Origin: JBHIBR01 sp046759145 [NCBI: Nitrospinota bacterium]
GTDB taxonomy: Bacteria > UBA8248
Direction: 5' to 3'
Assembly: GCA_046759145.1 (NCBI GenBank)
Contig: JBHIBR010000033.1
Location: 1 to 10,460 of the forward strand
DNA length: 10,460 bases
Within the stretch, counting starts at the first letter, position 1; each line of letters opens with the position of its first letter. Of the stretch, positions 2,324 through 10,460 are shown one piece after another. Both the position numbers and the translations under genes were made by a program. The notes below the pieces were generated by a model that did not search any database, had not been told where the DNA came from, and worked only from the letters and a program-made list of their open reading frames with translations.

Positions 2324-2410
2324 GCCGGAGTGGCGGAACGGTAGACGCAGGGGACTCAAAATCCCCCGGGACCTGGTCCCGTGTGGGTTCGAATCCCACC
2401 TCCGGCACCA
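2324..2410 (+). tRNA. tRNA-Leu (anticodon CAA, reads UUG)
   Basis: An 87-base class II tRNA with all parts visible: acceptor stem GCCGGAG (2324-2330) paired with CTCCGGC (2400-2406), discriminator A2407 and encoded CCA (2408-2410). The anticodon stem GGGGA/TCCCC encloses CTCAAAA, giving anticodon CAA at 2357-2359. The long variable arm GGGACCTGGTCCC is typical of leucine tRNAs, and the T-arm GTGGGTTCGAATCCCAC is complete. It decodes UUG leucine codons. No intrinsic terminator is evident directly downstream. Its closest relative in the window is the second tRNA-Leu at 3731. Confidence 0.96.
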
Positions 2411-2472
2411 AATTTATCAATCCCTTTCGGCATCCTGGCGATCATCGGTGGGAGCTTCAGAGGGGGCTATTG

Positions 2473-2652
2473 CTACGAAGCTGCCACCACGACGTCCCCG
2501 CTCTCCACCCACTCGTCCGTGGCGTGCATCTGCGAGGTCGACCCCGGGCCGAGGATCACAGTCGGGGTCTGCCCCAAGGTGTTCAGGAAGCGGGCGTCGG
2601 CCGCACCCTCGCGGCCTTCGCCCCAATTGCTGCGGGATAGGGTGCGCACCGG
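2473..2652 (-). pseudogene. C-terminal remnant of an M20-family metallopeptidase / deacylase (ArgE/DapE-like)
   Basis: Reading on the - strand to TAG at 2473-2475, the frame gives GREGAADARFLNTLGQTPT, then VILGPGSTSQMHATDEWVES and GDVVVAAS. This is the standard ending of M20 zinc hydrolases (acetylornithine deacetylase, succinyl-diaminopimelate desuccinylase, carboxypeptidase G2-like). It has the DAR substrate-binding motif, the GPG turn, and the His that ligates the second metal in the MHATDEWVE block. An in-frame TAA at 2653-2655 cuts it off just upstream, and no other part of the roughly 400-residue family could be found between here and the TPR gene. With only about 59 codons, no start and no catalytic domain, it is a decayed fragment. 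Parent function (amino-acid deacylase or peptidase) is not resolvable. Confidence 0.75.
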
Positions 2653-2894
2653 TTAGAATCCCCTCCCCTGCGGACCCTCCTGAGATAATAGTTATAGGAC
2701 AACTTCAAGGCTTCCGGCCGGTCAAGCGCATTGGCCCTGCCGTCCACAGTTTGCCCCCGGGGTTCCCCCTCCGGGGCGGGGACGTCTGCGGAGCCCGACC
2801 TGGCCCTGGGGATCGATGTTTTTGAGCCAGGGGCGATTGCGCGGAGGGGTTCGTAGACATCAGAATGGGTCCAAAAAGCAGGGAAAGGAGACGG
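2653..2894. other. Spacer before the TPR gene; no gene seen
   Basis: Contains AT-richer sequence near 2682-2702 and a GC-rich inverted repeat, CCCCGG/CCGGGG, around 2754-2776. No convincing promoter pair or gene was identified. It may include degraded sequence of the M20 gene that can no longer be recognised. Confidence 0.35.
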
Positions 2895-2951
2895 ATGAAC
2901 ATGGCGGCAGCCAGTGCTCTCATCGGGAGGCGGGAGCCCTCGGCGCCATGA
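2895..2951 (+). CDS. Putative 18-residue upstream ORF coupled to the TPR gene
   Basis: AAAGGAG (2884-2890) precedes ATG 2895 by four bases, or a second in-frame ATG at 2901 by ten. The frame encodes MNMAAASALIGRREPSAP and stops at TGA 2949-2951. That stop overlaps the ATG of the TPR gene as ATGA, the classic layout for translational coupling. The peptide resembles nothing I recognise. It could be a leader whose translation opens the TPR start region, a small protein in its own right, or a chance arrangement. The TPR gene's own ribosome site (GGGAG, 2932-2936) is 11 bases from its start and thus weaker, which favours coupling. No conservation data are available. Confidence 0.4.
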   Translation: MNMAAASALIGRREPSAP

Positions 2952-3523
2952 AACGTCGAAGGGCAAGGGTCGCCTTTGTGCTTCTGCTCCTCGGCGCCCT
3001 CGCCGCAGCTCCGATTCGGGCGGAGGAGGTCGAGGAGAAAGAGCCCTCCCTCCTGGCCACCCTCCTCTGGGAGCGGGGCCTCCTCCTGCACGCGCTCGGC
3101 CAGTACGAGTTGGCGGTCGGACACTTCCGCAAATCCATCGAAGTGCGCCCCACCGCCGAGGCCCACACCTACCTGGGCTGGTCCCTCAGCAAGCTGGGCC
3201 GGCTTGAGGAGGCGATCGGGGAGTGCAAGAAGGCCATGGCGCTGGACCCTGAGTTCGGAAACCCCTACAACGACATCGGCGTCTACCTCATCGAGCTGGG
3301 TCGCCCCAACGAGGCCATCCCCTATCTCGAGAAGGCCATCCGGGCCAAGCGATACTGCTGCTATCAGTTCGCCCACTTCAACATGGGCCGGGCGCTCTAT
3401 TTGCGGGGTGAGCTGGCCGAGGCGCGGCGCTCCTTCAAGCGGGCGCTCGAGGTGGACCCCGACTACGCCCCCGCCCGCGAGGCCCTGCGCGCCCTGAGGG
3501 AGCAAGGCTATAGGGACCTTTGA
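2948..3523 (+). CDS. Secreted or periplasmic TPR-repeat protein
   Basis: The product is 191 residues. Residues 1-25 form a signal peptide: basic MKRRRAR, hydrophobic VAFVLLLLGALAAA, and a likely cut after APIRA. The mature part is four tetratricopeptide repeats (about 34-68, 69-102, 103-136 and 138-172). The consensus is clear, for example LGRLEEAIGECKKAMALDP (83-101) and RGELAEARRSFKRALEVDP (153-171). TPR stacks bind proteins and, in the periplasm, often scaffold envelope complexes; no partner is evident here. I chose ATG 2948 over the in-frame ATG at 2816 because it starts exactly at the signal peptide, and the upstream extension is polar and unlike the rest. Cys94, Cys137 and Cys138 would be exposed to the periplasm. 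It lies between the two tRNA-Leu genes, and an 18-codon ORF overlaps its start. Confidence 0.85.
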   Translation: MKRRRARVAFVLLLLGALAAAPIRAEEVEEKEPSLLATLLWERGLLLHALGQYELAVGHFRKSIEVRPTAEAHTYLGWSLSKLGRLEEAIGECKKAMALDPEFGNPYNDIGVYLIELGRPNEAIPYLEKAIRAKRYCCYQFAHFNMGRALYLRGELAEARRSFKRALEVDPDYAPAREALRALREQGYRDL

Positions 3524-3664
3524 GATCCGCCCCCGGCGAGGCCCGCCCTCGGGAGATCGCCCGGGATGGCGTCTTCGGTCGCAAGCCGTAGACCATGTGG
3601 GTCTCCCGGCGGACGAACGCCGCCAGGCGGACCGGCTCGCCCCGGAGCTGCCGGGGCACAAGAC
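3524..3664. other. Short spacer between the TPR gene and the second tRNA-Leu module
   Basis: About 140 GC-rich bases. A short dyad (CGAGG/CCTCG near 3535-3550) follows the TPR stop, but it has no T-run and is not a clear terminator. On the - strand one frame stays open and continues into the 66-bp repeat, but I recognise no family in it. Confidence 0.3.
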
Positions 3665-3730
3665 ACAAAAAGACACTCTCGGGCCATCCGGGCCTGGACG
3701 GGGTAGCGTAATTCGTTGAAAATCGAAGAT
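3665..3730 (+). repeat. 66-bp block upstream of tRNA-Leu(TAA), copy B
   Basis: This is the ungapped partner of 2258-2323, with nine mismatches by my count. Similarity stops being obvious upstream of 3665 and continues downstream through the tRNA body. Copy B differs from copy A mainly by transitions (A/G and C/T), as expected from an old duplication rather than recent gene conversion. Confidence 0.85.
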
Positions 3731-3817
3731 GCCGGGGTGGCGAAAGGGCAGACGCGGGGGACTTAAAATCCCCTGGGGCCCAGCCCCGTGCGGGTTCGAC
3801 TCCCGCCCCCGGCACCA
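3731..3817 (+). tRNA. tRNA-Leu (anticodon TAA, reads UUA and UUG)
   Basis: An 87-base class II tRNA: acceptor GCCGGGG (3731-3737) pairs with CCCCGGC (3807-3813), then discriminator A3814 and encoded CCA (3815-3817). The anticodon stem GGGGA/TCCCC encloses CTTAAAA, giving TAA at 3764-3766. The variable arm GGGGCCCAGCCCC and T-arm GCGGGTTCGACTCCCGC are intact. Compared with the first tRNA-Leu it has the same length, the same anticodon stem and a single base change in the anticodon (C34 to T34). Substitutions elsewhere keep pairing: acceptor A-T becomes G-C, and a T-stem T-A becomes C-G. An intrinsic terminator follows ten bases later. Confidence 0.96.
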
Positions 3818-3826
3818 ATTTCTCTC

Positions 3827-3859
3827 AAGGGGCTGGCAACGCAAGCCCCTTTTCTTTTT
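3827..3859 (+). terminator. Intrinsic (rho-independent) terminator of the tRNA-Leu(TAA) transcript
   Basis: AAGGGGCT (3827-3834) pairs perfectly with AGCCCCTT (3844-3851) around a nine-base loop. It is followed by TTCTTTTT through 3859. Position just after the tRNA CCA end and the T-run make this a strong call. Confidence 0.9.
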
Positions 3860-4151
3860 GGCGTTTAGGGGAGGTGCCCTCTCCTTACGCGAGGGATGCC
3901 GAGGGAGTTGGGAGGAGGTGGAGGGAGGGGAAAAGAGGCGGACGATCCGGCACAAAATCCGGCACAGTAAATTTTGCCACCTGTAGAACCACCCCTCCCT
4001 TGGGCCTTCCCGGCTCACCCCCAAGGACGCCCCATCCTCCCCATAGAGTGCCCCTCTCAGCGCCACAGAGGCTCCAGGATGACCGAACGGGGGCGGCGAG
4101 GGTCCCCCCCCTTTCCGAAGTTGGCCTCGATGCGGGTGGAGACGGCCACGC
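3860..4151. other. Spacer with a purine-rich tract and a 12-bp tandem repeat; no gene seen
   Basis: The + strand at 3899-3940 is almost all purine with several GGG runs, a possible quadruplex-forming stretch. ATCCGGCACA occurs twice, at 3945-3954 and 3957-3966, as a 12-bp direct tandem. It is followed by a short AT-rich patch around 3967-3975. Frames running through here have no ribosome site or recognisable family. I found no third copy of the tRNA 3' end, so there is no sign of an attachment-site repeat. Confidence 0.4.
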
Positions 4152-4676
4152 CTACTGGCGCCAGGGCGGCACCTTCTTCGCGCCCTTCTTCCTCTCCTCC
4201 TTCGAGCCAACCGGGGCGCCGGAAGGGCGGATGAGGCTCACCTCCATCAGCTCCGATCCCTGCCGCCAGATGCGCGTGCCAATCTCCTCCATCAGCTCCC
4301 ATTCGGATTGCGGGATCTGGGCGAATACGTTGCCGCGCTCGTAGCCGCGCCACTCGCTGCGCAGGTATTCAGGCCCGTAGAAGAAGGCAACCACCTCGGT
4401 ACCCACCATCTCGTGCGGGCCGTAGTCGCGCTCGAATTCGCGCCAATACATCATCTCCCCGCGGCTAATGACGAACTGCGCGTTTTCCCGGTCGGGCTTC
4501 TTCCCGAGTGTCACGGGAAGGAAGCACTCCCGCCCGGTCCAACGGGCGTGGAAGGTGGCACCCTTGAGCGGGAGCTGGCTCGCGATGAGGTCGCAGGTGA
4601 TGGGAGCCTTCTTCTCGAGCAGCTCGGCCGTGAGCCTTCCCCCTCGGGAGAAGGAGAGCATGATGCGACGGGCCAT
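4152..4676 (-). CDS. DUF3830 family protein (cyclophilin-like fold)
   Basis: The 174-residue product opens with MARRIMLSFSRGGRLTAELL (1-20), then the EKKAPITCDLIASQLPL region and HARWTGRECFLPV (43-55). This is the pattern of DUF3830 proteins, small beta-barrels related to cyclophilins and of unknown activity. In family members the K-A-P-x-T-C segment and the A-x-W-x-G-R-E segment are the most conserved parts; both are present. The central GEMMYWR and FFYGP stretches also fit. The C-terminus (about 148-174) is a Lys/Arg-rich, probably disordered tail that I do not associate with the family. GAGG (4684-4687, - strand) lies seven bases before the ATG. The gene is divergent from ridA across a 161-base spacer with facing promoters. 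DUF3830 genes are often found near amidohydrolase and transport genes, which would fit the neighbourhood; its role remains unknown. Confidence 0.8.
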   Translation of the reverse strand: MARRIMLSFSRGGRLTAELLEKKAPITCDLIASQLPLKGATFHARWTGRECFLPVTLGKKPDRENAQFVISRGEMMYWREFERDYGPHEMVGTEVVAFFYGPEYLRSEWRGYERGNVFAQIPQSEWELMEEIGTRIWRQGSELMEVSLIRPSGAPVGSKEERKKGAKKVPPWRQ

Positions 4677-4711
4677 GGGACATCCTCACCGACAGGGAAG
4701 GTTTGGATACA

Positions 4712-4745
4712 GCGACATTCGCCAGTCGAGTTTATAATGAAAATC
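4712..4745 (+). promoter_or_regulatory. Candidate promoter for ridA with a perfect TATAAT
   Basis: TATAAT at 4733-4738 on the + strand is a perfect -10 element. The best -35 is GCGACA (4712-4717), with a short 15-base spacer, so the -35 is weak. This -10 overlaps the - strand -10 (4731-4736). The leader to ATG 4838 would be about 93 bases. Confidence 0.4.
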
Positions 4746-4759
4746 CACCCGCGCCGCAA
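4724..4759 (-). promoter_or_regulatory. Candidate promoter for the DUF3830 gene
   Basis: On the - strand TTGCGG (4754-4759) and TATAAA (4731-4736) are separated by 17 bases. The -10 matches five of six consensus bases. The start would fall near 4724, about 48 bases before the ATG at 4676. Confidence 0.45.
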
Positions 4760-4837
4760 TGAAATCCGAGGGGAGGAACGCCTCATGCGTGGAGGGTCAC
4801 TCCCCCCGCAGACAGGCTCACGCGAAGGAGGGTCGGC

Positions 4838-5305
4838 ATGGGCGTCGAGCGAAGGCTGGAGGAGCTGGGGATCGTGCTTCCGGAGGTGCCAGCCGCGGTG
4901 GCGAACTACATCCCGGGAGTCATCGTGGGCGAGGTGCTTTTCCTCTCGGGCACGATCGGACAGTACAACGGCGAGATCCCGATCAAGGGGAAGCTCGGCG
5001 CGGAGGTGACCGTCGAGCAGGGCTACGAGTCGGCGCGCCTCGCCGGCCTGAACCACCTCGCGATGGCGAAACACTGCCTCGGAGGCGACCTGGACCGCGT
5101 GGTCCGCGTCGTGCGGCTCCTCGGCTACGTGAACAGCGCGCCCGGCTTCAAGGAGGCGCCCTGGGTGGTGAACGGTGAGAGCGATCTCTTGGTGGCGGTT
5201 TTCGGCGAGGAGAAGGGCAAGCACGCGCGCGCCGCAATCAACATCAACGAGCTGACCTATGATGCGCCGGTTGAGACGATCCTCACCCTACACGTCCGGC
5301 CGTAG
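4838..5305 (+). CDS. RidA / YjgF family protein (enamine/imine deaminase-like, YjgF_endoribonc type)
   Basis: The product is 155 residues, the usual length of the longer RidA branch. RidA proteins form trimers and hydrolyse reactive enamine/imine intermediates from PLP enzymes in the cytoplasm; other branches act in catabolic pathways. Features seen are VLFLSGTIGQ (33-42), which is the beta strand with the SG motif, and LNHLAMAKHCLGGDLDRVVRVVRLLGYVNS (71-100), the central helix and strand. Next come APGFKEAPWVVNGESDLLVAVFG (101-123) and GKHARAAI (127-134). Arg131 corresponds to the substrate-carboxylate-binding Arg of RidA, and VE at 145-146 to the conserved C-terminal acidic site. ATG 4838 is supported by AAGGAGGG (4825-4832), five bases away. 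It is divergent from the DUF3830 gene and converges on the SDR gene 31 bases on. The exact substrate is unknown. Confidence 0.9.
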   Translation: MGVERRLEELGIVLPEVPAAVANYIPGVIVGEVLFLSGTIGQYNGEIPIKGKLGAEVTVEQGYESARLAGLNHLAMAKHCLGGDLDRVVRVVRLLGYVNSAPGFKEAPWVVNGESDLLVAVFGEEKGKHARAAININELTYDAPVETILTLHVRP

Positions 5306-5336
5306 GGGGCACACGGGGGGAGCAAGGGGTAGTCCA

Positions 5337-6083
5337 TCAATCCATCAGCAGGCCGCCATTCACATCGACGATCTCGCCCGTAATGTAACCGGCTTGCGGC
5401 GATGCCAAGAAGAGCACCACAGCGGCCACTTCCGGCGGGGTGCCGAACCGCTTCAAAGGACACTGCGCCTCCATCTGCTCGCGTTTCTCAGAAGGCCACT
5501 CGCTCGTCATGTCCGTGACGATGTTCGCGGGCGAGAGAGCGTTCACCCGCACCCCGTGCGGCGCCAGATAGCGAGCCGCCGCCTTCGTGAGACAATCCAC
5601 GCCCGCCTTGGAGGCAGAATAGTGCGGCGGAACAACGAGACCGCCCACCTTGCCGGCGATGGAACTAATGTTGATGATGCATCCGCGACCCTGCTTCTTC
5701 ATGGTCGGCACGACAGCGCGCATGCAGAAAAAAACCCCCCTCAGGTTCACGGCCAGGACACGGTCCCATTCCTCTGGCTCGATCTCCTCGAACGGCGTCT
5801 GGGGGCAGACGCCCGCATTGTTCACCAGCACGTCGATCCTCCCCCAGCGCTCAAGCGCGGCGGACACAAAGCGCTCCACCGAGCTTCTATCGCTCACATC
5901 GACCACCAGGCCCAGGGCTTCGCCGCCCGCCGCCCGCACCGCCTCGCCGCCCGCCGCCGCGCCCGCGGCGCTCGTGCTTCCGACGACCACCCGCGCGCTG
6001 GCCGCCCCGAAGGCGCCGGCTATCTGGCGGCCAATACCCCGGGATCCGCCCGTTACCATCACCACCTGATCCCTGAACTCCAT
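5337..6083 (-). CDS. Short-chain dehydrogenase/reductase (classical SDR, FabG-like)
   Basis: A classical SDR of 248 residues from the second of two adjacent ATGs. I prefer ATG 6083 because GGAGGG (6088-6093, - strand) is then four bases away. The first ATG (6086) would leave only one base; counting below is from that first ATG. The Rossmann dinucleotide site TGGSRGIG is at 12-19 and NNAG at 89-92. The catalytic set is Asn114 in NLRG, Ser142 in INISSIAG, and Tyr156 and Lys160 in YSASK. The C-terminal YITGEIVDVNGG is standard. VVDVSD (61-66) is the usual adenine-contact motif, and VVGSTS after the second strand suggests NADPH preference (inference). It oxidises or reduces a hydroxyl/carbonyl in the cytoplasm; substrate not determinable. 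It converges on ridA and faces away from the chimeric DctP gene, sharing a 400-base spacer with it. Confidence 0.93.
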   Translation of the reverse strand: MEFRDQVVMVTGGSRGIGRQIAGAFGAASARVVVGSTSAAGAAAGGEAVRAAGGEALGLVVDVSDRSSVERFVSAALERWGRIDVLVNNAGVCPQTPFEEIEPEEWDRVLAVNLRGVFFCMRAVVPTMKKQGRGCIINISSIAGKVGGLVVPPHYSASKAGVDCLTKAAARYLAPHGVRVNALSPANIVTDMTSEWPSEKREQMEAQCPLKRFGTPPEVAAVVLFLASPQAGYITGEIVDVNGGLLMD

Positions 6084-6224
6084 CATTCCCTCCCTGGTGC
6101 CCCCCTACCAAGGCACGTCAGTCGCCACGGACGTCGGAGACTGCGCTGCCTACGAGGGGAAACGGATATGGCCTCTCCGCTCAAGTGGGAAAGGGCTGGC
6201 CCCTCCGCCCCCCCGGCGCTAAGG

Positions 6225-6239
6225 GCGATGACGCATCGC
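6225..6239. promoter_or_regulatory. Perfect 6-bp dyad in the SDR / DctP intergenic region
   Basis: GCGATG (6225-6230) and CATCGC (6234-6239) flank a three-base centre. The flanks CTA (6219-6221) and TAG (6240-6242) extend the symmetry with a gap. This is the size of a regulator half-site pair but could equally be a small hairpin or chance. Confidence 0.25.
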
Positions 6240-6281
6240 TAGGCGTCGAGCCCGCGGCCAAAGGGGGGCATCCAACTCGAC

Positions 6282-6301
6282 TTTAGACAATAAAATATAT
6301 G
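6282..6301. promoter_or_regulatory. AT-rich island, probable promoter region between the SDR and the chimeric DctP gene
   Basis: TTTAGACAATAAAATATATG stands out from the GC-rich surroundings. TAAAAT (6291-6296) is a good -10 match on the + strand, and TAGACA (6284-6289) resembles a -35. They are not spaced to work together, and no clean -35 sits 17 bases upstream of TAAAAT. A promoter for either flanking gene is likely here, but I cannot define it. Confidence 0.35.
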
Positions 6302-6353
6302 AAATGCTTTCACATCGGAAAGATACGGCAACAGGGGAAGGAGGCTAGCGGAA

Positions 6354-6453
6354 TCCCTGCTTCACCGTCCGCGAGAGGCCGGTCGTCCAGAGGGGTCGTG
6401 CGCCATCCTTGGCGAATGCGGCCTGAGGCCGCACCTCTCCCGCGAAGCAGGGA
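6354..6453 (+). ncRNA. Candidate structured leader RNA (nested inverted repeats) upstream of the DctP-LivF chimera
   Basis: A perfect 10-bp inverted repeat closes a 100-base segment: TCCCTGCTTC (6354-6363) with GAAGCAGGGA (6444-6453). Inside it, GAGAGG (6373-6378) pairs with CCTCTC (6434-6439) as a second helix in register. Within that are two perfect hairpins: CGCCA/TGGCG (6401-6414, TCCT loop) and TGCGGCC/GGCCGCA (6417-6433, TGA loop). The arrangement of one long closing stem, a second stem and two side hairpins looks like a multibranched leader RNA. It ends 20 bases before the ribosome site of the next gene. It could instead be a small non-autonomous mobile element with terminal inverted repeats, but I see no target-site duplication. 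I do not recognise a known riboswitch class. Confidence 0.4.
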
Positions 6454-6488
6454 AGGATAGTTCCCACGATTTGGGGAGGAGAAAAGCC

Positions 6489-7562
6489 ATGCGTTCCCGA
6501 TGGATCCCCGTAGCGGCCATCGTCCACTGGATCGGATTGGCCCTGGTCGCCGCCCTGGCCGGGGCTCTCCTCCTGGCGCCGCCAGCGGAGGCGGCCCGGA
6601 AGATCACCATCCGCTTCGCCACCATAATCCCCCCCACGTTCCCTTACTACGACGGGATGCTGAAGTTCAAAGAGATCCTCGAGAAGAAACTGCCCGGCCG
6701 GGTCGAGGTGAAGCTCTACCACTCGGGCAAGCTGGGCGACGAGCGCGAAATCGAGGAGGGCGTGCTGCAGGGGAGCGTCCACGTCGCCATCGGCGCGGGC
6801 GCCTTCGCGGGCTTCGCCCCCATCATGGACCTGGTGGAGCTGCCCTTCCTCATCAAGAACCAGGCCCATCTCGAACGCATCGCCACCGGTCCCATCGGGC
6901 GCAAGCTGGCGGAGCTGGTGGCCAAACAGTCGGGCTTTCGGGTCCTGGCCTGGTACAGCACGGGGGACAGCTCCATCGAGACCACCAGGCGGCCCGTCCG
7001 TAAGCCGGAGGACCTGCGGGGGGCCAAGATCCGGACCATGCCCAACAAGGCCATGGTGGCGGCCCTCAAGGCCCTGGGTGCGAACCCCACGCCCGTCCCC
7101 TACCTGGAGGTCTACACGAGCCTGAAACAGGGGGTCGTCGAGGGGACCACCAACGACTGGATGTCTGTGAAGACCATGAAGTTCTACGAGAGCCTGAAGT
7201 ATGCCACCGACCCCAGCAACGCCTACCTGGCGGAGCGAAGAGGCCAGATGGCGGGCTCCCTCAGTGGGGGCGAGCAGCAGATGCTGGCCCTCGGGCGGGG
7301 CCTCATGGCGAGGCCCCGCCTCCTGCTGGTGGATGAACCCTTCTTGGGTCTCGCCCCCGAAGTGGTTCAGACCATCGCCGGGGTGCTCCAGGCCATCAAT
7401 CGGGAAGGGACCTCGGTACTCTTCATCGAGCAGAACGTGGAGCTGGCCTTCTCCCTCTCCCAACGCGGTTACGTGATGGAGAGCGGCCGCATGGTGCTGG
7501 AGGGAAAGGGGGAAGAGCTGCTCCAAAACGAGGAGTTGCGCAAGGTGTATCTGGGGCTCTGA
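6489..7562 (+). pseudogene. Chimeric gene: TRAP solute-binding protein (DctP) N-part fused in frame to the C-terminal half of a LivF ABC ATPase
   Basis: From ATG 6489 (GGGGAGGAG at 6473-6481) one open frame encodes 357 residues. Residues 1-36 are an export signal (hydrophobic 14-31, cut near AEAA). Residues 37-247 are a DctP-type TRAP binding protein: KITIRFATIIPPTFPYYDGM, GEREIEEG-like DEREIEEG (84-91), and PEDLRGAKIRTMPN (173-186), which carries the conserved ligand Arg182. The match ends at KYATDPSNAYL. From about 248 the sequence is the end of LivF: RRGQMAGSLSGGEQQMLALG (250-269, ABC signature), LLLVDEP (278-284, Walker B), FIEQN (312-316) and YVMESGRMVLEG (328-339). The ATPase half lacks Walker A and the Q-loop; the DctP half lacks about its last 80-100 residues. 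An exported half-ATPase cannot hydrolyse ATP, so this is most likely a deletion fusion or an assembly chimera. No DctQ/DctM or Liv genes flank it. Confidence 0.88.
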
Positions 7563-7609
7563 GGGCGGGATCCCCCCCCCGGGCCCCGGTCGGAAGGGAA
7601 TAGCTTCCT

Positions 7610-9379
7610 TCACCAAGTGGCCAGGGGACGCTCCTCCCCCGCCGCCCGGGCCATGGCAGCCCTAAGGGCGGCCGTGGCTGGCTGGTCCACTTCCAGGCTC
7701 TCGGGGTCCAGGACGACGCCGTAGTCCCGGCGCGCGCCCAGGGGGCTCACCTTACCGTCCCGCACGTCTTCCACCACCCGCTCGACTCCGCGCTCCCAAG
7801 GTGGACCGTAGCCTCCCCCCCCGGCCTGGAGGTGGAGGAAAACGTCCCCTCGACGCAGCAGCCGGCGTTTTACTTTGGCCTCAAGCTCCTCATGGAGACC
7901 CCCGCGGTCCACCAGAAGGTTTTTCGACCGCGCCCCCGGCCTTCCCCTGAAGAGGCCATAGGGGGCGAAGCGGACCCGGTCGGCCCGGACCTGAAGGTTT
8001 CCCTCCTCGGCCAAATAGCGGTATTGGCGCAGGAGGCCCAGCCCTCCCCGGAAACGGCCCGCCCCGCCCGAGTCGGGGATGAAGCCATACCGCTCCACCC
8101 GGATGGGGTACTCGCTCTCCAGCACCTCCACGGGCACATTGGACTGGAGGCCCGTCACGTTGGAGGCGCAGTCGATGCCGTCCTTGTCGGGGCGCGCGCC
8201 CCAGGTCCCCGAGATGGTCTCCATGTACATGAACCGCTCGCCGCCCCCGTCGTGGCCGTCGATGAGGACGATGGTGGTTCCCCCCTCGTCCGCGGCCACC
8301 ACCCTGTGGGGGGCCGCCTGGGCCAGGGCACCGAAGAGGACGTTGTTAATCCGGTAGCCCGTCAGTCCCCGCATGAAAGTGGCGGCCGGGAAGACGGCGT
8401 GGACCACAGTCCCCGGCGGTGCGACGACGTGGATGGGGCGGAAGAAGCCGGAGTTCTCCGGGATGTCCGCCCGGGTGATGCACTTGACCGCCGTGTAGAC
8501 GCAGGCCTTGGTGAAAGAGAGACTGCAGTTGAGGGAACCCCGGCACATGGGCGCCGTCCCGGTGAAGTCGGCGGTGAGCTCCTCCCCCTCGATGGTGACC
8601 GCCACGGTGATGGGGATGGCCTCGGGGTCCAGGCCGTCCTCATCCAGGTGGTCGGTGAAGGTGTAGGTCCCATCCGGGAGGGCGGCAATCTCCCGTCGGG
8701 TGATGAGTTCGCTGTGATCCATGAGGGCCTCGAGGCAGCCGTCCAGCTCGCCGAGGCCGTAGCGGGCGATGAGCCGCCCATAGGCCCGCTCGCCCGCCCG
8801 GCAGGCAGCCACCTGGGCGTGGAGGTCTGCCAGCAGGATCTCGGGAAATCGCACGTTCCGCCGCAATAGCGCCAGCAGCGTCTCGTTCGGTCGGCCTCCC
8901 TCGTAGAGCTTCAGGGGAGGGATCCGCAGCCCCTCCTGGAAAACCTCCGTCGCGTCGCTGGCGGCGCTCCCCACGGCCATGCCCCCCACGTCGGCGTGGT
9001 GGGCGCAGGTGGCCATGAAGGCGGCCAAGGCGCCGCCGTGGAAGACGGGCTTGAAGAGAAACACATCGGGAAGGTGGGAGCCGCCTTCGAAGGGGTCGTT
9101 CAAAAGGAGAACATCCCCCTCGCGCAGGTCCCCCTGAAAGCGCTCCAGCACCGCGGCCAGGGCGTCGGGGAAGGCGCAGAGCATGAGAGGGATGGTGAGG
9201 GCCTGGGAGATGACACTCCCCCTCGCGTCGCACACGGCGGTGGAGAAGTCCATGCAATCTTTGATCATGTTCGCCCGGGCGCTCCGGACCACGGTGAAGG
9301 CCATCTCGTCGGCGATGCTCTCCAGGCCGTTTCGCACGACCTCAAAGGTAATGGGGTCCACCCCGGGCGGAGCGCTCAT
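7610..9379 (-). CDS. hyuB: Hydantoinase B / oxoprolinase family protein (HyuB-type subunit)
   Basis: The product is 589 residues, a normal length for HyuB. With HyuA it forms an ATP-dependent enzyme that opens cyclic amides (N-methylhydantoin, 5-oxoproline) or, in relatives, carboxylates acetone or acetophenone. Family marks are PITFEVVRNGLESIADEMAF (9-28), the metal-binding block NDPFEGGSHLPD (94-105), AHHADVGG (126-133), EGLRIPPLKLY (149-159), RNVRFPEILLADLHAQVAA (174-192), and the terminal GGGGYGPPWER (520-530). ATG 9379 is preceded by AGGAGG at four bases. The hyuA stop overlaps it as ATGA, so the two are translated as a coupled pair, the standard hyuA-hyuB order. It converges on the chimeric DctP gene with 47 bases between. 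Substrate cannot be told apart within the family from sequence alone. Confidence 0.93.
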   Translation of the reverse strand: MSAPPGVDPITFEVVRNGLESIADEMAFTVVRSARANMIKDCMDFSTAVCDARGSVISQALTIPLMLCAFPDALAAVLERFQGDLREGDVLLLNDPFEGGSHLPDVFLFKPVFHGGALAAFMATCAHHADVGGMAVGSAASDATEVFQEGLRIPPLKLYEGGRPNETLLALLRRNVRFPEILLADLHAQVAACRAGERAYGRLIARYGLGELDGCLEALMDHSELITRREIAALPDGTYTFTDHLDEDGLDPEAIPITVAVTIEGEELTADFTGTAPMCRGSLNCSLSFTKACVYTAVKCITRADIPENSGFFRPIHVVAPPGTVVHAVFPAATFMRGLTGYRINNVLFGALAQAAPHRVVAADEGGTTIVLIDGHDGGGERFMYMETISGTWGARPDKDGIDCASNVTGLQSNVPVEVLESEYPIRVERYGFIPDSGGAGRFRGGLGLLRQYRYLAEEGNLQVRADRVRFAPYGLFRGRPGARSKNLLVDRGGLHEELEAKVKRRLLRRGDVFLHLQAGGGGYGPPWERGVERVVEDVRDGKVSPLGARRDYGVVLDPESLEVDQPATAALRAAMARAAGEERPLATW

Positions 9380-10460
9380 GGGTCCTCCTCCCGGGCGCCG
9401 CCCTCGATGAGGAGGTTCCCCTCCGCGTCCAACCGCGCGGTGAACCCAGGCGGCACCACCGCGGTGGCGTCGTACTCCTCCACGATGAGAGGGCCAGGCC
9501 GGGGGACGCGCCCCAATGCGAGCCGCGAGAGGACCGGCGTTGGCAGGGAGCCCGCCTCAGGGCCGAAGTAGACCGGACGCTCCCCCCCCGGGGTCGGCCC
9601 ACCTGTCCGGGAGGCATCCTTCGCCCCGACCACGGGCCATCCCCCCTCCCCCAGCGCCTGGGCCGTCACTCGAAGGGCAACCATCTCCACCTCGGCCCCC
9701 GCGGCTCTGTAGCCGTAAATGCGCTCGTGCTCCACCCCGAAGGCCTCGACGAGGCGGTCCAGGTCCTCCCTCCTCAGCGCCCCATCGGGCAGGGGCAGGG
9801 TGAGCTCGGAGACCTGCTTGCGGTACCGGAGGTCCACCGAGCGCGCCAAGGTCACTTCCTCACCGCCCGCTGCCCACACCTCGTCCCGGGCCTCATCCTC
9901 CAGGGCTTCCAGGACGATGCCGAGCTGGTCCGGGTCGAGGCCTGCGAGCGGGCCCAGGTAGGTTCGTACCGCGTGGCGCTCCAGACGGGCGGAGAGGAGG
10001 CCGAAGGCGCTGAACAGCCCGGGGTGCGGCGGGATCACAACGCGCCTCATTCCCAGCTCTCGGGCGAGCTCTGCGGCGTGGACGGGGCCGCTCCCCCCGA
10101 AGGCGATGAGGGCGAAATCCCGCGGGTCCCGGCCCCGCTCCACCGAGATAGAGCGAATGGCCCGGATGAGGTTCGCGTTCGCGACCCGGTGGATGCCGTG
10201 GGCCACCTCGAGCGGGCCCATCCCGAGGGGTTCGGCGATCCGGCGCGCGATGGCCTCCCGGGCGAGGTCGGGGTGGAGGCGGAGGGTGCCCCCCGCGAGG
10301 AAGTCCGGGTTCAGGTAGCCCAGCACCAGGTCGGCGTCGGTGACGGTGGGCTCCGCACCACCGAGCCCGTAGCAAGCGGGGCCGGGGTTCGCGCCCGCAC
10401 TCCCAGGCCCCACCCTCAGGGTGCCGCCCGCCTCCAGCCAGGCCACCGAACCGCCCCCCG
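9376..10460 (-). CDS. hyuA: Hydantoinase A / oxoprolinase family protein (HyuA-type subunit), 5' end outside the window
   Basis: About 360 C-terminal residues of a roughly 690-residue protein are present; the frame runs open to the right edge, so the start lies beyond it. The edge reads GGSVAWLEAGGTLRVGPGSA then GANPGPACYGLGG, the highly conserved central signature of HyuA. PTVTDADLVLGYLNPDFLAGG and FALIAFGGSGPVHAAELA, part of the actin-like ATP-binding fold, follow. The C-terminal domain ends in PGPLIVEEYDATAVVPPGF, also standard. A GTG at 10444-10446 could be mistaken for a start, but it falls inside the conserved block. HyuA supplies the ATP-binding part; HyuB is encoded immediately downstream with a 4-base overlap. 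Relatives include 5-oxoprolinase, N-methylhydantoinase and acetone carboxylase beta subunit. Confidence 0.94.
   Translation of the reverse strand, partial: GGGSVAWLEAGGTLRVGPGSAGANPGPACYGLGGAEPTVTDADLVLGYLNPDFLAGGTLRLHPDLAREAIARRIAEPLGMGPLEVAHGIHRVANANLIRAIRSISVERGRDPRDFALIAFGGSGPVHAAELARELGMRRVVIPPHPGLFSAFGLLSARLERHAVRTYLGPLAGLDPDQLGIVLEALEDEARDEVWAAGGEEVTLARSVDLRYRKQVSELTLPLPDGALRREDLDRLVEAFGVEHERIYGYRAAGAEVEMVALRVTAQALGEGGWPVVGAKDASRTGGPTPGGERPVYFGPEAGSLPTPVLSRLALGRVPRPGPLIVEEYDATAVVPPGFTARLDAEGNLLIEGGAREEDP

What the first reader, a model, noticed from the sequence alone, without database searches (positions are those of the whole stretch)
6489..7562. In-frame chimera of a TRAP binding protein (DctP) and a LivF ABC ATPase C-terminal half
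Two transport proteins of unrelated families and opposite compartments are joined in one uninterrupted frame. DctP identity ends near Leu247 (7227-7229) and LivF identity begins within a few codons (LAERRGQMAG). Signal peptide and ribosome site are intact, but Walker A, Q-loop and the DctP C-terminal lobe are missing. The CTG Leu codon at the junction could be a microhomology between the two parents. Explanations are a genomic deletion between neighbouring dct and liv genes, a domain-swap protein with a new role, or an assembly error. The uninterrupted 357-codon frame on both sides points to a recent event or an artefact.
Basis: partly seen in the sequence, partly recalled or inferred. Interest (0 to 1): 0.75.

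Follow-up and report, generated by a model that had tools for sequence, protein, structure and literature searches.

The report
Broken two-gene join: DctP onto LivF
A single open reading frame joins the front two thirds of one transport protein to the back half of an unrelated one; it is probably the scar of a DNA rearrangement or a laboratory/assembly chimera, not a working new protein.

Summary
One open frame (6489-7562, 357 aa) matches DctP over residues 43-247 (Pfam positions 1-205 of 286) and LivF over residues 245-356 (positions 125-236 of 237). The breakpoint lies at codons 246-248 (7224-7232): LivF-like sequence starts at Leu247, after the Phe-Pro present in 26 of 26 LivF rows (25 distinct genes). 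The missing DctP C-terminus and LivF N-terminal half were not found elsewhere in the window. No spanning relative was found: 0 of 4009 plasmid records with a match cover 80% of the query, 6 of 6 viral-contig loci match the LivF part only, and listed matches in 301 Chloroflexota genomes cover one half; ten junction-crossing alignments opened were ordinary single-family proteins. But no close relative of the window was found, so recurrence in its own lineage is untested. Likeliest is a deletion joining two co-oriented transporter genes, leaving a dead hybrid; a chimeric molecule or assembly join is nearly as likely. A working domain-swap protein is unlikely: the signal-like DctP N-terminus would send a Walker A-less ATPase fragment out of the cytoplasm.

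The parts
6473..6481 (+). Shine-Dalgarno-like GGGGAGGAG upstream of the ATG
   Evidence: sequence
6489..7562 (+). chimeric open reading frame, 357 aa plus stop
6489..6593 (+). signal-peptide-like N-terminus (residues 1 to about 35, ending AEA); judged by eye, no predictor run
   Evidence: sequence; pattern recalled
6615..7226 (+). DctP-like part, residues 43-246
7224..7232 (+). breakpoint zone, codons 246-248 (TAC CTG GCG)
7227..7559 (+). LivF-like C-terminal half with ABC signature (LSGGEQQ) and Walker B (LLLVDEP), without the half that holds Walker A and Q-loop
   Evidence: motif names recalled
5337..6086 (-). left flank: SDR oxidoreductase (FabG-like), near full-length profile match
7610..9379 (-). 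right flank: hydantoinase B, convergent with the chimera, full-length profile match

Best explanation
A DNA rearrangement, most simply one deletion between a TRAP dctP gene and a co-oriented livF gene, joined codon ~246 of dctP to codon ~125 of livF in register. Shown: the join in the given sequence, its position, the missing parts. Inferred: that the join exists in the organism, that it arose by deletion, and that the product is dead. The hybrid keeps the DctP start, ribosome site and a signal-like N-terminus, so a product would probably be exported. The DctP fold would lack its last ~80-110 residues. The ATPase half would lack Walker A and sit where there is no ATP. I expect misfolding and degradation, that is, a young pseudogene.
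For: Both halves match their families strongly and end within about three codons of each other. A DctP relative and two LivF relatives used as queries find no other piece of either parent in the window. Base make-up across the join itself is even: 65.9% G+C before, 65.2% after; tetranucleotide correlations of 0.599 (split at 7000) and 0.671 (split at 7500) lie within the 0.515-0.697 range of 12 split points. The stretch the parents could share looks short: 26 of 26 LivF rows have Phe-Pro where the chimera has Asn-Ala, and 0 of 5 DctP relatives continue as ERR; a join by an overlap of 21 or more bases in a k-mer assembler is therefore unlikely (inference). In the liv operon inspected (L042), livF follows livG-, livH- and livJ-like frames in the same orientation (names by eye), so one deletion could remove everything between.
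Against: No reads and no genome of the lineage, so a chimeric library molecule fits the sequence nearly as well. The parents' adjacency is not shown: no relative with dctP beside a liv operon was seen. Microhomology on the DctP side is not supported by the distant relatives. The right flank as a whole is richer in G+C than the left (69.9% for 7227-10460 against 65.2% for 2401-7226), because of hyuB and hyuA (68.5% and 73.4%); third-position G+C also differs between the halves (91.5% and 83.8%). That is weak evidence for two sources, though ugpC on the left side also has 68.8%.
Confidence: 0.52

Rival explanations
1. Artefact: two DNA molecules, or two places of one genome, were joined during amplification, library preparation or assembly.
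For: No spanning relative among 4009 plasmid records with a match (0 cover 80% of the query), 6 viral-contig loci, or the listed matches of 301 Chloroflexota genomes. No whole genome is held for the window, so it may be a metagenome contig. The right flank is 4.7 points richer in G+C than the left. Chimera formation in multiple displacement amplification is documented (PMC1855051; search listing and start of abstract only).
Against: No step in G+C or tetranucleotide make-up at the junction itself. The stretch shared by the parents looks too short for an ordinary k-mer overlap. The join is in register (one in three by chance). No N at the junction.
Confidence: 0.44
2. A working domain-swap protein, for example an exported binding protein with a new C-terminal half.
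For: Open frame, ribosome site and signal-like N-terminus are intact.
Against: Both folds are cut inside their domains: DctP at position 205 of 286, LivF before position 125 of 237. No relative with the junction was found, though none of these sets is known to include the window's lineage. The single-sequence structure model is too poor to count for or against (mean pLDDT 35.3).
Confidence: 0.04

Closest known systems
DctP/TRAP solute-binding protein (PF03480, NF037995)
   Same: residues 43-247, start, signal-like N-terminus
   Different: last ~80 profile positions missing; no dctQ/dctM match among the nine window frames scanned
LivF branched-chain amino acid ABC ATPase (NF008626; 1ji0)
   Same: residues 245-356, including signature and Walker B
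   Different: first ~125 residues, with Walker A and Q-loop, missing
Hybrid genes left by deletions (general class, recalled)
   Same: one breakpoint, 5' part of one gene and 3' part of another, same orientation
   Different: parent arrangement not seen in any relative

Membership tests
DctP (PF03480) | score above the curated cut-off | tested here: met
   197.6 bits against 23.4; NF037995 also met, 166.9 against 50; the stricter TIGR00787 not met, 149.7 against 175.05
DctP (PF03480) | full-length binding protein over the 286-position profile | tested here: not met
   only positions 1-205 matched
LivF (NF008626) | score above the curated cut-off (441 bits) | tested here: not met
   125 bits, positions 125-236 of 237
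ABC ATPase | Walker A (P-loop) | tested here: not met
   the LivF match begins at position ~125; LivF relatives L016 and L020 match the window only at 7227-7559 and at the separate ugpC gene
ABC ATPase | signature motif and Walker B | tested here: met
   LSGGEQQ and LLLVDEP, aligned to 1ji0; motif names recalled
deletion-derived hybrid gene | parents co-oriented and neighbouring in a relative | not testable with these tools
   no close relative reached

The most novel reading that the evidence does not exclude
A fixed, expressed exported protein in which most of a DctP carries a repurposed, ATP-independent LivF C-terminal half, conserved in the unsampled lineage of this contig.
Probability: 0.03. 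Interest if true: 0.6.

Novelty: new member of a known kind. Interest (0 to 1): 0.12.

Why it matters
As a deletion scar or chimeric contig it matters mainly as a caution: such frames can enter protein databases as apparent new domain fusions. Only if the junction recurred in sister genomes would it say something new about how binding proteins and ATPases can be combined.

Tried and rejected
Own-genome search: none held. Two scans of the species-genome collection, one with the DctP part plus junction and one with hydantoinase B, gave no relative of the first query and three distant relatives of the second (Dehalococcoidia 49%, two haloarchaea 31% and 30%). Each scan used six exact 8-residue patterns, so it reaches close relatives only. 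I could not place the lineage. Chloroflexota were searched only because L001 gave a usable centre; nothing shows that the window belongs there.

The search of 400 Chloroflexota genomes with the DctP part at E<=1e-45 was empty; that limit was too strict to be a test of recurrence, since the best DctP-side row listed had only 3.3e-34, and the tool warns that an empty answer without a positive control shows nothing. The match list was cut by the tool, and at most 6 candidates per genome were scored, so unlisted rows were not seen.

Alignments that cross the junction were followed up. In one search, G260 (176-356) and G059 (235-356) are LivF frames with Walker A and without a DctP match. In one search, L011 (182-335) and L014 (237-338) match only the LivF half and carry a Walker A. 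Among the 10 plasmid rows listed of 4009, 9 cross codon 247 in part (H10 does not); six of these nine (H1, H2, H6, H7, H8, H9) were opened and each frame matches one half only; H3-H5 are further Sinorhizobium fredii rows with the same query range as H1 and were not opened. No frame of 90 residues or more in loci L001-L041 matched both halves at E<=1e-8.

A single-sequence structure prediction was useless (pLDDT 35.3). The scan found no sigma-70-like promoter and no terminator-like site at 6087-7700. Paper searches: 'TRAP transporter'+'LivF'+'gene fusion' 0 papers; 'DctP'+'LivF'+'chimeric' 0 papers; a microhomology/deletion/fusion search gave one review, not read; chimeric-contig and amplification-chimera searches were seen as listings only. 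No paper was opened.

Odds moved by 0.01 from deletion to artefact for that reason.

Full report
It starts with ATG at 6489 behind GGGGAGGAG (6473-6481), runs 357 codons and stops at 7560-7562. Pfam places DctP on residues 43-247 (profile 1-205 of 286, E=3.6e-58) and the end of ABC_tran on 247-285. NCBIfam places TRAP_S1 on 43-245 and LivF on 245-356 (positions 125-236 of 237, E=3.2e-36). Solved-structure sequences give the same cut: 4p47 (DctP) to residue 236 of 345, and 1ji0 (ABC transporter) from 129 to 239 of 240.

The breakpoint can be placed within about three codons. Against five DctP frames from two genomes of the Chloroflexota search (the sixth DctP locus, a short fragment, gave no hit and was left out), the chimera aligns through Tyr246 (Tyr in 3 of 5), and none of the five continues as ERR. 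Against 26 LivF rows, all 26 have Phe-Pro-x-Leu where the chimera has Asn-Ala-Tyr-Leu, so LivF-like sequence starts at Leu247. The 26 are the rows among loci L001-L041 with E<=1e-20 whose alignment reached the start of the LivF part with enough sequence upstream; weaker or later-starting rows were dropped. L010 and L012 overlap and show the same gene, so there are 25 distinct genes. Eleven of the 26 have CTG at the Leu. Only 1 of 5 DctP relatives has Leu at that place, so a microhomology is possible and not shown. Any shared stretch must be short, which argues against a join by a normal k-mer overlap in an assembler (inference).

No other piece of the parents was seen in the window. A DctP relative (35% identical) matches only 6663-7202, and two LivF relatives match only 7227-7559 apart from the separate ugpC gene; a diverged DctP C-terminus could be missed by so distant a query. 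The nine window frames scanned with Pfam show no TRAP permease and no other liv component. The flanks are an SDR oxidoreductase (5337-6086, minus) and hydantoinase B and A (7610-9379, and 9376 to the window end, minus).

Base make-up is even across the join itself: 65.9% G+C in the DctP part and 65.2% in the LivF part, and tetranucleotide correlations near it (0.599 at 7000, 0.671 at 7500) lie within the 0.515-0.697 range of 12 split points. Against this, the right flank as a whole is richer than the left (69.9% against 65.2%), through hyuB and hyuA, and third-position G+C is 91.5% in the DctP part against 83.8% in the LivF part. The left side also holds a gene of 68.8% (ugpC), so this is weak evidence either way.

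Recurrence: 0 of 4009 plasmid records with a match have one place covering 80% of the query. Six of 6 viral-contig loci match only the LivF part. Of 301 Chloroflexota genomes, 237 had a match at E<=1e-25; the listed rows cover the LivF side (starting at 244-248) or the DctP side (28-246, 29-245), with two longer LivF-side rows. Ten alignments that cross the junction (two, two, six) were opened: each is a protein of one family only. The list was cut by the tool. Two scans of species genomes found no close relative of the window. The decisive test, the same place in a sister genome, could not be made.

The openness of the frame proves little. The antisense strand carries a 423-aa open frame over the same place, and from 7230 the other two forward frames run 81 and 34 codons before a stop. 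A join in register happens one time in three by chance. So the frame neither shows selection nor dates the event.

Mechanism. The simplest history is one deletion between co-oriented dctP and livF genes. In the liv operon inspected (L042), the livF frame follows livG-, livH- and livJ-like frames in the same orientation, named by eye. The product would keep a signal-like N-terminus, lose the last part of DctP, and carry an ATPase half without Walker A into a compartment without ATP. It should not work as either parent; this rests on recalled knowledge of both families and was not tested. The rival that fits nearly as well is a chimeric molecule or join. I put 0.52 on a real rearrangement, 0.44 on an artefact and 0.04 on a working protein.

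Two literature searches for such a fusion returned no paper. They cover only the open-licence PMC library and say little about novelty.

Noticed in passing
2258-2414 and 3665-3821: Two tRNA-Leu genes (anticodons CAA and TAA) lie in 157-nt direct repeats 84% alike, 1407 bases apart, with a TPR-protein gene between them.
   Followed up: partly
181-268: Long C-rich tract with overlapping repeated blocks rich in CCCCACCCCCC.
   Followed up: no
L044 (G138:C303): A dctP-like frame ends about 1.5 kb upstream of a hydantoinase B-like match on the same strand, so TRAP and hydantoinase genes occur together elsewhere.
   Followed up: partly
4152-4676 minus: DUF3830 protein (E=6.2e-17) beside a Rid-family gene (4838-5305); possibly part of a catabolic cluster with the hydantoinase genes (inference).
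   Followed up: no
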